Origin: JBDRGX01 sp043817485 [NCBI: bacterium]
GTDB lineage: Bacteria > JBDRGX01
Length of the DNA: 14,321 bases
Assembly (NCBI GenBank): GCA_043817485.1
Contig: JBDRGX010000032.1
Location: 1-14,321, forward strand
Direction: 5' to 3'
The notes under the pieces are model-generated. The model was not told the origin of the DNA. It saw only the letters and a program-made list of their open reading frames with translations, and searched no databases. Below are positions 9,572 to 14,128 of this stretch, in pieces. The first letter of the stretch is position 1. Each line of letters begins with the position of its first letter. The position numbers and the translations under genes were made by a program.

Positions 9572-11974
9572 TTAAGATAAATTAGTTCTATATCTATCAT
9601 TCAACTCGCCTTTTTTACCTTTATTCCAACCAGATATTTTAGAAAAATATCCAGTAATTCGAGTAATTCCATCTACTTTATCAGAATTACAATATTCACA
9701 AACTTCTTTTAATCCACGCATTAATTTAAAACAACTATTACAAGAAGTAAATTCTGGAGAAAAAGCAATTTGAGCATTTTGAGTATTTTTAAAAGTTTTA
9801 GTTACAAAATCAGCTATAGATCCTGCATCTGGACGACTATCTGCAATCCAAATATGCGAAAGAGCTCCAGCTTCTATTAATGGATGAAAAATTCCTTCTG
9901 TTTGTATTCTTTCAATTGGAGAAATTGGATGAGAAATATTTAGATAAGTAGAATTAGTATAATATATATTCTCAGTTTTCATATCACCTTTTATAATTGG
10001 TTTACTTTGTTCTGTAAAATATTCTAAATCTAATTTAGCTAAACGATAAGCAGTACTTTCTGCTGGAGTTTGCTCTAAAACAAATTTCATTTTATATTTT
10101 TCTGATAATTTTTTTAAAGCCAAATTAATGTAAGCAATAATTTTTATTCCAAATTTTAACATTTCTTTTGAAGCATGTAATTCTTTTCCTAAATGATACT
10201 CAACCATTTCATTTAATCCGAGAATTCCAATAAGAAAACTTGCTTTTTCCATTCTAATATATCTTTTTCCTTCATGTTTTGCTGCTAAAAGTGCTAAAGG
10301 CCCTTTATCTTCTAATAAAAGTAATTTTTCAATAAACCTTTTCTTTTGTATATGTGCTTTAACAGATAATTCTAAATATTCATCTAATTTTTGAAATAGT
10401 TTTTGTTCATCATGATTTGCAATATAAGCAACTCGAGGTAAATTTAAAGTAACATTTTGTAAAGCACAAAATCTCATATTCCAAGGAGTTTTTGCATCTT
10501 CAATATCAGATTGTTCTAATTTAAAACTTAATCTACAACATTCACTTACTTTCATTGTTTCACCACGATCAAAAACAAAATAAGTATTTCCTTTTTCACT
10601 TGCTACCTCTGAAATATGAAGAAGAAAATCTTGATGTCCTGGAGTTTTAAAAAACTTTTCAGTAATATGAACTAATGGTTTAGGAAAGAAAAAAGGTCTT
10701 CCAGATGCATCACCTTCTTTATAAACATCAAACAATGCCCAAAGAAATTTTCTTGATTCATTAGCATAATCTTTATAACATTTTCCAGTATATTCACCTC
10801 CTGGCCCAATTGCTAATGTATTTTCAAAATGTTTAGGAATTTCCCAATATAAATTGATGTCTGAAAAAATTGCTTGTCCACCTCTTGCTACTGATTGCTG
10901 AGAATATTCAAAAATTAACATTTGAGCTAATTGTTTTAAATCTCTATCTGAAAGACCTACTAAAAAAGGTGCAAAAAAAATATTTACAGCATCCCATCCA
11001 ATAGCTCCAGCAAAATGTCCTTGAAGAGCTGCTGAAAATTTAACCATATGAGCCAACAAAGTTTCAGGATGTTTGGCTGGTTTAGTAATAGATAAGGAAT
11101 TAGGCATAGTTAAACCAAATTTTTTAATAAACTCTAATGATTGTCCAGAACAATAAGGTCTTGAAATAAAACCTAAGTCATGAATATGAATATCGCCCTT
11201 AATATGAGCATCTGCAACATCTTGAGAAAAAACTTTTATTAAAGCATATTGTTTATTTATGGCTTCTGCTAAAGTCATATTAATGGCTTCTGGATTATGA
11301 GGAATATTTGCATTTTCTTTATTAGCATCAAAAATAATTTGCTCTACATCATAAAGAGGAACACCTAAACGAGTATGTTTTTTTCTTGCTTCTTCTAAAC
11401 CATATTCTATTAATTTAACATCAACCAATTCTCTAATTAAAGAAGAAGTAATTACTTTAATATTTGATTTTATAATTTGTTTTTCTACTTCTAAGCTTAT
11501 TTGTGTAGCTAATTCAGAAGGAATATTAGCTTCTTTAATTAAAACATCTATAATTCTATTTCTATTCCATTCGGCAATACCTTCATTCTTTCTTACAAAA
11601 AGTGAAAAATCTGTAATATCTGTTTTTTCAAGAGATTTTTTTTTGGTATTATCTTTTGTATTTCGTAAATTATTTCTGTTATTTCTATAAAGTATAAATG
11701 ATTTAGCTGTTTTTGCATGACCTGTTTCAATTAAAACTTTTTCTATTGCATCTTGAATTTCTTCTACATTTGGAATATAATCATTATATTTGCTATACAA
11801 ATATTGAATAACCATATCTGTTAATTCTTCTGATTTTTGTATATTTTCTCCACCTACAGATTTAGCAGCTGCAAAAATTGCATTAGTAATTTTTTTTCGA
11901 TCAAACTCAATAATTCGACCATCTCTTTTATGAATAAGAGTAAATGAGTTATTCATATTTTTTGCTTTAATCAT
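9572..11974 (-). CDS. nrdD: Anaerobic (class III) ribonucleoside-triphosphate reductase
   Basis: An 800-residue glycyl-radical enzyme that reduces ribonucleotides to deoxyribonucleotides in the absence of oxygen. Two ATP-cone regulatory domains come first (about 11-101, HKRDGRIIEFDRKKI; about 122-212, VRKNEGIAEWNRNRI). The catalytic barrel contains GDIHIHDLGF, Cys275 (PYCSGQSL) and Cys479-Cys480 (SECCRLSF), probable radical-chemistry cysteines by family position. Near the end, Cys745, Cys748, Cys759 and Cys762 form the zinc site, and Gly775 in RITGYFS is the radical glycine. Two ATP cones make it longer than the E. coli enzyme (about 710). CGGAGAA precedes the start at eight bases. The activating enzyme NrdG, which must install the radical, is not adjacent. 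NrdR-type boxes lie upstream. Its loss of activity in air is a family property. Confidence 0.95.
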   Translation of the reverse strand: MIKAKNMNNSFTLIHKRDGRIIEFDRKKITNAIFAAAKSVGGENIQKSEELTDMVIQYLYSKYNDYIPNVEEIQDAIEKVLIETGHAKTAKSFILYRNNRNNLRNTKDNTKKKSLEKTDITDFSLFVRKNEGIAEWNRNRIIDVLIKEANIPSELATQISLEVEKQIIKSNIKVITSSLIRELVDVKLIEYGLEEARKKHTRLGVPLYDVEQIIFDANKENANIPHNPEAINMTLAEAINKQYALIKVFSQDVADAHIKGDIHIHDLGFISRPYCSGQSLEFIKKFGLTMPNSLSITKPAKHPETLLAHMVKFSAALQGHFAGAIGWDAVNIFFAPFLVGLSDRDLKQLAQMLIFEYSQQSVARGGQAIFSDINLYWEIPKHFENTLAIGPGGEYTGKCYKDYANESRKFLWALFDVYKEGDASGRPFFFPKPLVHITEKFFKTPGHQDFLLHISEVASEKGNTYFVFDRGETMKVSECCRLSFKLEQSDIEDAKTPWNMRFCALQNVTLNLPRVAYIANHDEQKLFQKLDEYLELSVKAHIQKKRFIEKLLLLEDKGPLALLAAKHEGKRYIRMEKASFLIGILGLNEMVEYHLGKELHASKEMLKFGIKIIAYINLALKKLSEKYKMKFVLEQTPAESTAYRLAKLDLEYFTEQSKPIIKGDMKTENIYYTNSTYLNISHPISPIERIQTEGIFHPLIEAGALSHIWIADSRPDAGSIADFVTKTFKNTQNAQIAFSPEFTSCNSCFKLMRGLKEVCEYCNSDKVDGITRITGYFSKISGWNKGKKGELNDRYRTNLS

Positions 11975-12017
11975 TTAGTTTTCTCCGTTGTTTTTATTTA
12001 TAAAAATTTTTATAAAT

Positions 12018-12065
12018 ATACTTGATATTGGGCATTGGAATTAAAATAGATACAATATATAGTTT
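12018..12065. promoter_or_regulatory. Tandem NrdR boxes upstream of nrdD
   Basis: Box 1, ATACAATATATAGTTT (12050-12065), matches the NrdR consensus acaCwAtATaTwGtgt at 14 of 16 positions, including the whole ten-base core. Box 2, ATACTTGATATTGGGC (12018-12033), matches at 11 of 16, eight of ten in the core. Their starts are 32 bases apart with a 16-base gap, the three-helical-turn spacing known for NrdR operators. Box 2 is 44 bases from the nrdD start and box 1 sits inside the likely promoter. Repression by ATP/dATP-bound NrdR is inferred from this match. Confidence 0.7.
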
Positions 12066-12074
12066 TTTTGTCAA
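12046..12074 (-). promoter_or_regulatory. nrdD promoter
   Basis: On the minus strand a perfect TTGACA (12074-12069) is followed after 16 bases by TATCTA, the best -10 candidate. NrdR box 1 occupies most of the spacer, as expected of a repressor site. The -10 match is weak, so the exact start is uncertain. Confidence 0.5.
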
Positions 12075-12084
12075 GATTTTTTTA

Positions 12085-12155
12085 AAAATTGTTAGTTGGT
12101 TGATGACCCCATATGGGAACCACCATTTTTCTCTCTTTTCTGAGAGATTATAGCA
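12085..12155 (-). promoter_or_regulatory. Second minus-strand promoter and structured leader or small RNA
   Basis: On the minus strand TGCTATAAT (12155-12147) is a perfect extended -10. The expected transcript starts near 12140 (GAAAAGAGAG), then contains a GC-richer stretch that can pair TGGTT with AACCA around CCCATATGGG, then AATTTTT. A 14-codon frame, starting ATGGTGGTTCCC and ending with TAA, overlaps it after a purine-rich leader. It may be an upstream nrdD promoter with a leader, a small RNA or a leader peptide; I do not recognise the fold as a known riboswitch. Confidence 0.4.
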
Positions 12156-12551: not shown

Positions 12552-12647
12552 ATGCCTTGTGGACGAAAAAGAAAAAAGCATAAAATAAATACACATAAAA
12601 GAAAAAAAAGAAAAAGAGCTAATAGACATAAGAAAAAGAAAATTTAA
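12552..12647 (+). CDS. Small basic ribosomal protein, mS38/bS22 family (AURKAIP1/COX24 domain)
   Basis: A 31-residue protein starting MPCGRKRKKHKINTHKRKK. Of its residues, 21 are Lys, Arg or His. The start MPCG-(K/R)-KRK-x-HK-x-x-THKRKKR and the end RHKKK match the short bacterial proteins annotated with the AURKAIP1/COX24 domain, related to mitochondrial mS38 and actinobacterial bS22, which bind rRNA in the small ribosomal subunit. A strong AGGAGGG lies nine bases upstream. The tRNA-Phe gene begins eight bases after the stop, consistent with co-transcription and with a translation role. Such short genes are often missed by gene finders. Family assignment is by recognition of the signature; the exact ribosomal position is from relatives. 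Confidence 0.85.
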   Translation: MPCGRKRKKHKINTHKRKKRKRANRHKKKKI

Positions 12648-13211: not shown

Positions 13212-13365
13212 AAAATTCGAAATAAATTTTAAACCCAAATGAACAAAACAGATTTTGTTTAGAATATTTATATTTTGGTCATTTGGATTTGTTTCGTATT
13301 TCGAAATTTTCTTTTTATTTCATATTTCGAATTTGGATAGTTTGCAACATTTTATTTTTGATGGC
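13212..13365. repeat. Dispersed AT-rich repeat, copy 2, with internal inverted repeat
   Basis: Left-arm blocks AAAATTCGAAATA (13212-13224) and CCCAAATGAACAAAAC (13234-13249) are matched in inverse order by TTTTGGTCATTTGG (13273-13286) and TATTTCGAAATTTT (13297-13310), giving a large imperfect stem. Segments 13271-13313 match 2440-2480 in inverse orientation, and 13338-13365 matches 2806-2833 directly. The apparent N-terminal extension of the next gene is made of this repeat. Confidence 0.65.
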
Positions 13366-13387
13366 AACTTTGTATAAGGAGTTATTT

Positions 13388-14128
13388 TTGACAATTATTC
13401 AAGAACAATTATTTTTATTGAAACTTCACTTTAGAAAATGTTTTTTTGATATTTATGATAATTTAGGAACATCTATTTGTTTTAATTTTTTTTGGAGTTT
13501 TCTTTTTTTTCCTTGTTTTTTTTTATTACTTTTAAATAAAAATATATTACTAAAAACTACTAATTTTCTTCTTATTGAATATCCTATTACTGGTATTTTA
13601 TTTTATAATATTAGATTGTTAATTAAAGAAGAAAAAAATATTCAAATTAAATTTTTTATTGAAAATTTTAAAAAATATTTTTGGAAAAGTATTTTTTTAT
13701 TTTTAATTTACTTTTTTGCCTTTTTCTTATTTAAAATAAATTTTCAATTTTTTCAAACTTCTGTTGGAATAAATAAATTCATTTCAATAATTAATTTATT
13801 TGTTATATGTTTTTTTATTTTTATTCAAAATTATACATTTCCTTTAATGACTTTGAATTTTACAATGAAAAATATTTTTAAATATGCTATCTATTTAAGT
13901 TTAAATAATTTCTTTTTTACTTTTTGTATTTGGATGCAAAATGTAGCTATTCTTTTATTTACGAGTTTTACTGTTCTTGGATTATTATTAATAGGAATAA
14001 GTATTGTTGTTATTTCTCAATTAAATAGTTTAGCCATTCTTTTAAATAAGTATCAAAATATTTCTTATTTAGAAGAAAAATATTATCGTAAAATAAAAGA
14101 ACTTTGGAAACCATGGGGAAAACAATAA
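13388..14128 (+). CDS. Multi-pass membrane protein of unknown function (DUF624/YesL-like pattern)
   Basis: I do not recognise this gene with certainty. From the TTG at 13388 it encodes 246 residues, extremely rich in Phe, Ile and Leu. Hydrophobic segments at about 28-50, 58-75, 100-117, 131-150 and 186-212, with a weaker one at 163-180, suggest five or six membrane helices and a charged C-terminal tail (YLEEKYYRKIKELWKPW). The layout DNLGTSICFNFFWSF, then PITGILFYNIRLLIKEEKN, then FFIENFKKYFWKS resembles the DUF624/YesL pattern, but this is tentative. The TTG is chosen because AAGGAG (13376-13381) sits six bases before it. An upstream ATG at 13361 has no ribosome binding site, and the longer frame from 13283 runs through repeat DNA. 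It is monocistronic, with a hairpin overlapping its stop. Confidence 0.65.
   Translation: MTIIQEQLFLLKLHFRKCFFDIYDNLGTSICFNFFWSFLFFPCFFLLLLNKNILLKTTNFLLIEYPITGILFYNIRLLIKEEKNIQIKFFIENFKKYFWKSIFLFLIYFFAFFLFKINFQFFQTSVGINKFISIINLFVICFFIFIQNYTFPLMTLNFTMKNIFKYAIYLSLNNFFFTFCIWMQNVAILLFTSFTVLGLLLIGISIVVISQLNSLAILLNKYQNISYLEEKYYRKIKELWKPWGKQ

What the first reader, a model, noticed from the sequence alone, without database searches (positions are those of the whole stretch)
12018..12074. Canonical tandem NrdR operator over the nrdD promoter
Two boxes matching the NrdR consensus at 14/16 and 11/16 positions are 32 bases apart, the spacing characteristic of true NrdR operators, and the better box lies between a perfect TTGACA and the likely -10. 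The two-box spacing makes chance unlikely even in AT-rich DNA. It predicts an NrdR gene in this genome and a regulon beyond nrdD.
Basis: partly seen in the sequence, partly recalled or inferred. Interest (0 to 1): 0.6.

Follow-up and report, generated by a model that had tools for sequence, protein, structure and literature searches.

The report
NrdR repressor operator at nrdD
The DNA just upstream of an anaerobic ribonucleotide reductase gene carries a convincing, ordinary two-box landing site for the repressor NrdR, in a little-known bacterial lineage whose nearest relatives usually keep the repressor gene beside it.

Summary
Confirmed, and largely ordinary. Two boxes, 12050-12065 and 12018-12033, lie 32 bp apart (16-bp spacer) upstream of a class III RNR gene, nrdD (9572-11974, minus). 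A matrix built only from 43 promoters of other genomes ranks them 1st and 6th of 14,306 positions; as a pair they score 23.6 bits (next at spacing 30-33: 9.9) and 0 of 5000 shuffles of the upstream region reach that. Of 51 genomes of the WOR-3 phylum with this NrdD, 47 have nrdR, each time directly upstream of nrdD; 43 of 45 non-redundant nrdR upstream regions show TTGACA followed by two such boxes. In the window nrdR is not there, yet the operator is. Standalone nrdD with its own operator is common elsewhere: 21 of 30 bacterial genomes with NrdR, but also 3 of 4 bacterial genomes without detectable NrdR, so the operator itself does not prove that NrdR is present. nrdR elsewhere in this genome is likely but untested, since no genome is held. 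Not secure: the -10, and any regulon beyond nrdD, which is patchy in relatives. New member of a known kind.

The parts
12050..12065 (.). NrdR box 1 (strong, promoter-distal); reads AAACTATATATTGTAT in the nrdD sense; C4 and G13 present
   Evidence: 14/16 to consensus, rank 1 of 14306 with a matrix from other genomes
12018..12033 (.). NrdR box 2 (weaker, promoter-proximal); reads GCCCAATATCAAGTAT in the nrdD sense; C4 and G13 present
   Evidence: 11/16 to consensus, rank 6 of 14306; 32 bp from box 1, 16-bp spacer
12069..12074 (-). TTGACA, probable -35 hexamer; begins 9 bases before box 1
   Evidence: in 42 of 43 relatives' promoters TTGA(C/T) begins 3-7 bases before box 1
12043..12048 (-). TATTTT, weak candidate -10 one base after box 1; 20 nt from TTGACA, so uncertain
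   Evidence: sequence; one search lists no promoter using this TTGACA
11983..11986 (-). GGAG, probable ribosome-binding site of nrdD
   Evidence: sequence
9572..11974 (-). nrdD, anaerobic (class III) ribonucleoside-triphosphate reductase, 800 aa, with N-terminal ATP-cone matches
   Evidence: TIGR02487 425.5 bits (cut-off 326.35); PF13597, and PF03477 in two stretches

Best explanation
This is a tandem NrdR operator. NrdR, a Zn-ribbon/ATP-cone repressor, when loaded with dATP plus ATP binds as a tetramer to two boxes three helix turns apart, covers the promoter and stops nrdD transcription when dNTPs are plentiful; the block lifts when dATP falls. Shown here: the two-box site, its non-randomness, its position, and the same arrangement in relatives. 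Known for the family from the literature, not for this organism: the tetramer mechanism. Inferred: that this genome encodes NrdR away from nrdD, and that the site is bound and repressed. By parsimony the ancestor shared with WOR-3 and with the phylum of G149 had nrdR upstream of nrdD behind one operator; in the window's lineage nrdR is no longer in that place while an operator sits on nrdD.
For: Matrix ranks and shuffles; the window's pair score 24.8 (other background) is at the 70th percentile of leave-one-out scores of 43 promoters in front of intact nrdR. TTGACA/box/box fits before nrdR in 43 of 45 non-redundant regions; 4 of 4500 shuffles reach the same fit. nrdR directly upstream of nrdD in 47 of 51 genomes. 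The same order before nrdR in all five genomes with this NrdD in the phylum of G149 (G149; G166, G167, G169, G178; pair scores 16.8 to 25.4); G178's box 1 equals the window's at 14 of 16 bases. Standalone nrdD with its own operator in 21 of 30 bacterial genomes that have NrdR elsewhere. Spacer 16 bp, within the 14-17 bp bound by all NrdRs tested (PMC12051234, passages). G:C pairs nine apart in each box matter for binding in S. coelicolor (PMC9110341, passages); C4 and G13, which I take to be these, are present 4 of 4 in the window.
Against: No nrdR in the window and no genome held to look in. In the 4 of 51 genomes without nrdR over the cut-off beside nrdD, none was found elsewhere. Operator and NrdR do not track each other among bacteria with standalone nrdD: 21 of 30 with NrdR, 3 of 4 without detectable NrdR; the difference over all 42 loci (21 of 30 against 3 of 12, P 0.014) comes from 8 archaeal loci that have neither. 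C4/G13 complete in both boxes is usual but not universal in relatives (30 of 43). TTGACA is 9 rather than 3-7 bases from box 1 and no clear -10 exists. Box 2 is weak by consensus count.
Confidence: 0.83

Rival explanations
1. Orphan operator: nrdR has been lost from this genome and the boxes are a relic of the nrdR-nrdD operator.
For: nrdR is missing from its usual place. In three WOR-3-phylum genomes (G002, G004, G113) no intact nrdR stands before nrdD and none was found elsewhere. Three of 4 bacterial genomes with standalone nrdD and no detectable NrdR still show a box pair. Window box 2 (GCCCAATATCAAGTAT) equals the box that straddles the nrdR start codon in L082 (ATACAATATGAAGTGT) at 11 of 16 bases.
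Against: In the three nrdR-less WOR-3-phylum genomes the pair scores 16.8 (G004), 0.5 (G002) and -10.1 (G113), against 24.8 in the window (boxes in those three placed by eye; best pairs anywhere in their loci 16.8, 10.2 and 6.2). C4 and G13 are kept 4 of 4. Most bacterial genomes with standalone nrdD have NrdR (30 of 34), and the NrdR-less ones may be incomplete.
Confidence: 0.11
2. The boxes are real but read by another repressor, or by NrdR together with another factor.
For: No binding data; the promoter geometry departs from relatives.
Against: Motif, spacing and gene target match NrdR, and the same boxes stand before nrdR itself in relatives.
Confidence: 0.03
3. Chance match in AT-rich DNA.
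For: 26% GC; 43 positions reach 11/16 or more.
Against: 0 of 5000, 0 of 300 and 0 of 300 shuffles reach the pair score.
Confidence: 0.01

Closest known systems
NrdR operators of E. coli nrdDG / nrdHIEF and L. monocytogenes nrdDG (PMC12176259, PMC12051234; passages seen)
   Same: Two boxes with a 15-16 bp spacer near the promoter of an RNR operon; in L. monocytogenes nrdDG the spacer is 16 bp and the boxes overlap the RNA polymerase site
   Different: Here nrdD stands alone (no nrdG beside it in the window), in an uncultured lineage; box 2 is weak; the -10 is unclear
S. coelicolor nrdRJ operator (PMC9110341; passages seen)
   Same: Conserved G:C pairs nine apart in each box, boxes about three helix turns apart
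   Different: Its operon, as the name nrdRJ says, includes nrdR; in the window nrdR is not linked to nrdD
nrdR-nrdD operators of the WOR-3 phylum and of the phylum of G149
   Same: TTGACA, box 1, -10 region, box 2 in the same order; orthologous NrdD
   Different: There it stands before nrdR; TTGACA lies closer to box 1; spacing 29-34, most often 30 (16 of 43)
Standalone nrdD operators in other bacterial phyla
   Same: The operator sits directly on a standalone nrdD while nrdR, where found, lies elsewhere
   Different: Spacing mostly 31

Membership tests
NrdR operator | Two palindromic 16-bp boxes of the NrdR type | tested here: met
NrdR operator | Spacer of 14-17 bp (or 24-27) | tested here: met
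   16 bp; range from PMC12051234 (passages)
NrdR operator | Conserved G:C pairs nine apart in each box | tested here: met
   C4 and G13 in both boxes (boxes printed); importance from PMC9110341 (passages); that C4/G13 are these pairs is my mapping from their distance
NrdR operator | Lies upstream of a ribonucleotide reductase gene | tested here: met
   nrdD, TIGR02487 over cut-off
NrdR operator | Conserved upstream of the orthologous gene or operon in relatives | tested here: met
   but no relative with over 70% NrdD identity was available
NrdR operator | Overlaps the promoter or start site | tested here: inconclusive
   TTGACA begins 9 bases before box 1, but no -10 at normal distance
NrdR operator | nrdR gene in the same genome | not testable with these tools
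   no genome held
NrdR operator | Bound and repressed by NrdR with dATP/ATP | not testable with these tools
   needs an experiment

The most novel reading that the evidence does not exclude
The window's operator is what is left of an nrdR-nrdD operon after nrdR was deleted: box 2 is the remains of the nrdR start codon (relatives read ...ATG AAG TGY, Met-Lys-Cys, as the right half of box 2; the window reads ...ATC AAG TAT), and nrdD is now run by an orphan or re-recruited operator.
Probability: 0.07. Interest if true: 0.4.

Novelty: new member of a known kind. Interest (0 to 1): 0.2.

Why it matters
It shows that a known repressor system can be recognised by sequence in lineages without cultured members, and that an operator can sit on nrdD when the repressor gene is no longer its neighbour. 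The relatives add two testable points: in many WOR-3-phylum genomes one NrdR box is formed partly by the first codons of nrdR itself, and in some the same kind of box pair precedes a purF-like gene.

Tried and rejected
Own-genome search for nrdR: no genome is held. First idea, that the window is a WOR-3 genome that must have lost nrdR because nrdR is not found away from nrdD there (47 of 51 beside nrdD, 0 elsewhere): weakened when the NrdD trees placed the window outside the WOR-3 rows, on the branch between them and the isolate-UBA9089 lineage with others (both are rooted at the midpoint only and draw its sister differently), and when standalone nrdD with its own operator was found in genomes with NrdR elsewhere. 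dapA is most similar to the phylum of G149 (best 60%) rather than to the WOR-3 phylum (best 56%); the taxonomy is left open.

Operator/NrdR co-occurrence: the overall test (P 0.014) looked like support, but on re-checking the difference comes from archaea; among bacteria it vanishes (21 of 30 against 3 of 4, P 1.0).

Fossil start codon in box 2: resemblance only (11 of 16 bases to one relative's box); what follows box 2 does not read as NrdR by eye; kept as a low-probability reading.

Exact-box search (one box, up to one mismatch, 147 genomes): 30 distinct places in 25 genomes, 19 of them upstream of nrdR, 5 before a purF-like gene, 1 before a second nrdD, 1 before dnaE, 4 others; the reversed control pattern gave 15 matches, so the others may be chance. 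Rfam gave only the tRNA at gathering threshold. The promoter scan gave no more sites than shuffles (7 against mean 5.5, sd 2.7).

Rows set aside: the matrix used 43 of 45 non-redundant upstream regions (42 of the WOR-3 phylum and L007); L062 (fit 19) and L015 (no TTGA(C/T) fit) were left out, both having a box farther upstream. The fit gave extra weight to C4 and G13, which biases the matrix toward them but not toward the window. In one search L040 (nrdR match split and below cut-off) was left out of the 2x2 table; L038 was counted as without operator although a 28.1-bit pair lies just beyond the 200-bp limit; L074 was counted as without operator although its nrdD match begins at residue 218, so its true upstream was not seen.

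Full report
What was claimed.

Observation. The gene at 9572-11974 (minus) is a class III ribonucleotide reductase (TIGR02487 425.5 bits against a cut-off of 326.35; PF13597 and two ATP-cone stretches). The boxes are at 12050-12065 (14/16) and 12018-12033 (11/16), 32 apart. TTGACA is at 12069-12074 on the minus strand, GGAG at 11983-11986, and 43 bases lie between box 2 and the start codon. The consensus is recalled, so I built an independent matrix: in 45 non-redundant nrdR upstream regions of related genomes I looked for TTGA(C/T) followed by two boxes; 43 fit at 27 points or more, while 4 of 4500 shuffles do. With the 86 boxes of these 43, the window's boxes rank 1 and 6 of 14,306 positions and the pair scores 23.55 bits; the next pair at spacing 30-33 scores 9.87, and at spacing 28-35 11.9 (reusing box 1). 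No shuffle reaches 23.55 (0 of 5000 for a 200-bp region, 0 of 300 for the whole window, 0 of 300 for intergenic-like composition). With a different background the score is 24.8, the 70th percentile of leave-one-out scores of the 43 promoters.

Promoter. The -10 is not secure. The scan finds no hexamer pair using this TTGACA at 16-18 nt. TATTTT directly after box 1 would match the place of TATAAT-like hexamers in many relatives but is 20 nt from TTGACA; in 42 of 43 relatives TTGA(C/T) begins 3-7 bases before box 1, here 9.

Relatives. NrdD's best matches are 67-69% identical, mainly in candidate division WOR-3 and, in a smaller search, in the phylum of G149 (isolate UBA9089). Of 147 held genomes of the phylum of G001 (WOR-3), 51 have this NrdD at 60% identity or more; 47 of these have nrdR over the family cut-off, in all 47 on the same strand within 400 bases upstream of nrdD. 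The other four are G116 (contig ends just upstream) and G002, G004 and G113, where no intact nrdR stands in the place. In G004 tblastn finds a C-terminal nrdR remnant (45% over 44 residues, E 7e-5); in G002 and G113 it finds none, and only short NrdR-like stretches can be read by eye. Their pair scores, at boxes placed by eye, are 16.8 (G004), 0.5 (G002) and -10.1 (G113). In the phylum of G149 five of 19 genomes have this NrdD; all five have nrdR upstream (three with one gene of about 260 aa between) and TTGACA with two boxes before nrdR.

Standalone nrdD. In other phyla nrdD often stands without nrdR beside it. Of 42 such loci counted (L040 left out), 30 lie in genomes with NrdR and 21 of these carry a significant box pair on nrdD; of 12 without detectable NrdR 3 do (Fisher P 0.014, NrdR status). 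But 8 of the 12 are archaeal and have no pair; among bacteria the figures are 21 of 30 and 3 of 4 (P 1.0). So the arrangement seen in the window is common in bacteria that have NrdR, but an operator does not by itself tell that NrdR is present. Completeness of these genomes is not given, so absences are weak, and the loci are not independent of each other.

Placement. Two trees of NrdD put the window on a long branch between the WOR-3 rows and the UBA9089 lineage with others. No close relative is held. The window has nrdD without the neighbour that it has in the nearest groups, but with an operator as good as theirs.

Mechanism. From the literature (passages only): NrdR with dATP and ATP forms a tetramer that binds two boxes about three helix turns apart and bends the DNA sharply; inverting conserved G:C pairs nine apart weakens binding about 50-fold (PMC9110341). 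Spacers of 14-17 bp are bound by all four NrdRs tested (PMC12051234). E. coli nrdDG and nrdHIEF have 15-bp spacers (PMC12176259). The window has a 16-bp spacer and C4 and G13 in both boxes, as do 30 of 43 relatives' promoters. That the site is bound, and that dATP closes it, is inferred from the family.

Regulon. The window has no second pair. In relatives an exact-box search finds 19 of 30 places upstream of nrdR; box pairs also occur before a second nrdD in 2 of 5 loci looked at, before none of 6 other ATP-cone ORFs of 667-699 aa, and before a purF-like gene in 8 of 30 loci.

Verdict. A convincing NrdR operator, a new member of a known kind, in an unplaced lineage where the repressor gene is not next to nrdD. 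Whether nrdR is elsewhere in this genome could not be tested.

Noticed in passing
nrdR promoters of WOR-3-phylum loci, e.g. L082, L085, L102, L124, L144, L146-L151: In 18 of 43 promoters box 2 straddles the nrdR start codon: ATGAAGTG, from the codons for Met-Lys-Cys at the start of the Zn-ribbon, forms its right half, so the repressor's own coding sequence is part of its operator (count). Not seen in the passages read; searches made: only.
   Followed up: partly
L196, L197, L198, L201, L202, L204, L206, L213 (upstream of a purF-like gene): A diverged amidophosphoribosyltransferase paralogue (TIGR01134 181 bits, below the cut-off of 350) has a box pair upstream in 8 of 30 loci (at most 1 of 200 shuffles as good), which suggests that NrdR control has spread to purine synthesis in one group; the register (29-32) is ambiguous.
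   Followed up: partly
L176:1469-1516 (G082): A near-perfect pair at spacing 32 (31.4 bits) lies upstream of dnaE (DNA polymerase III alpha) in a genome where the NrdR search gave no match.
   Followed up: no
L006/L092 (G004), L003/L091 (G002), L141 (G113): No intact nrdR upstream of nrdD where relatives have it; G004 keeps a detectable remnant, and the operators are weakened or gone.
   Followed up: partly
L260, L261, L262 (phylum of G149): A gene of about 260 aa sits between nrdR and nrdD in three genomes; its family was not searched.
   Followed up: no
window 12552-12644, plus strand: A 31-residue Lys/Arg-rich ORF just before tRNA-Phe and an HU gene; no Pfam or NCBIfam match at 0.001. It recalls small ribosomal proteins of the COX24/mS38 type (recalled, not tested).
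   Followed up: no
window 12091-12124: A GC-richer island (GTTAGTTGGTTGATGACCCCATATGGGAACCACC) with a CCCATATGGG palindrome in very AT-rich intergenic DNA upstream of nrdD; no Rfam match at gathering threshold.
   Followed up: no
window 13283-14128, plus strand: A 281-aa ORF, hydrophobic and perhaps membrane-spanning by eye, without a Pfam or NCBIfam match at 0.001.
   Followed up: no
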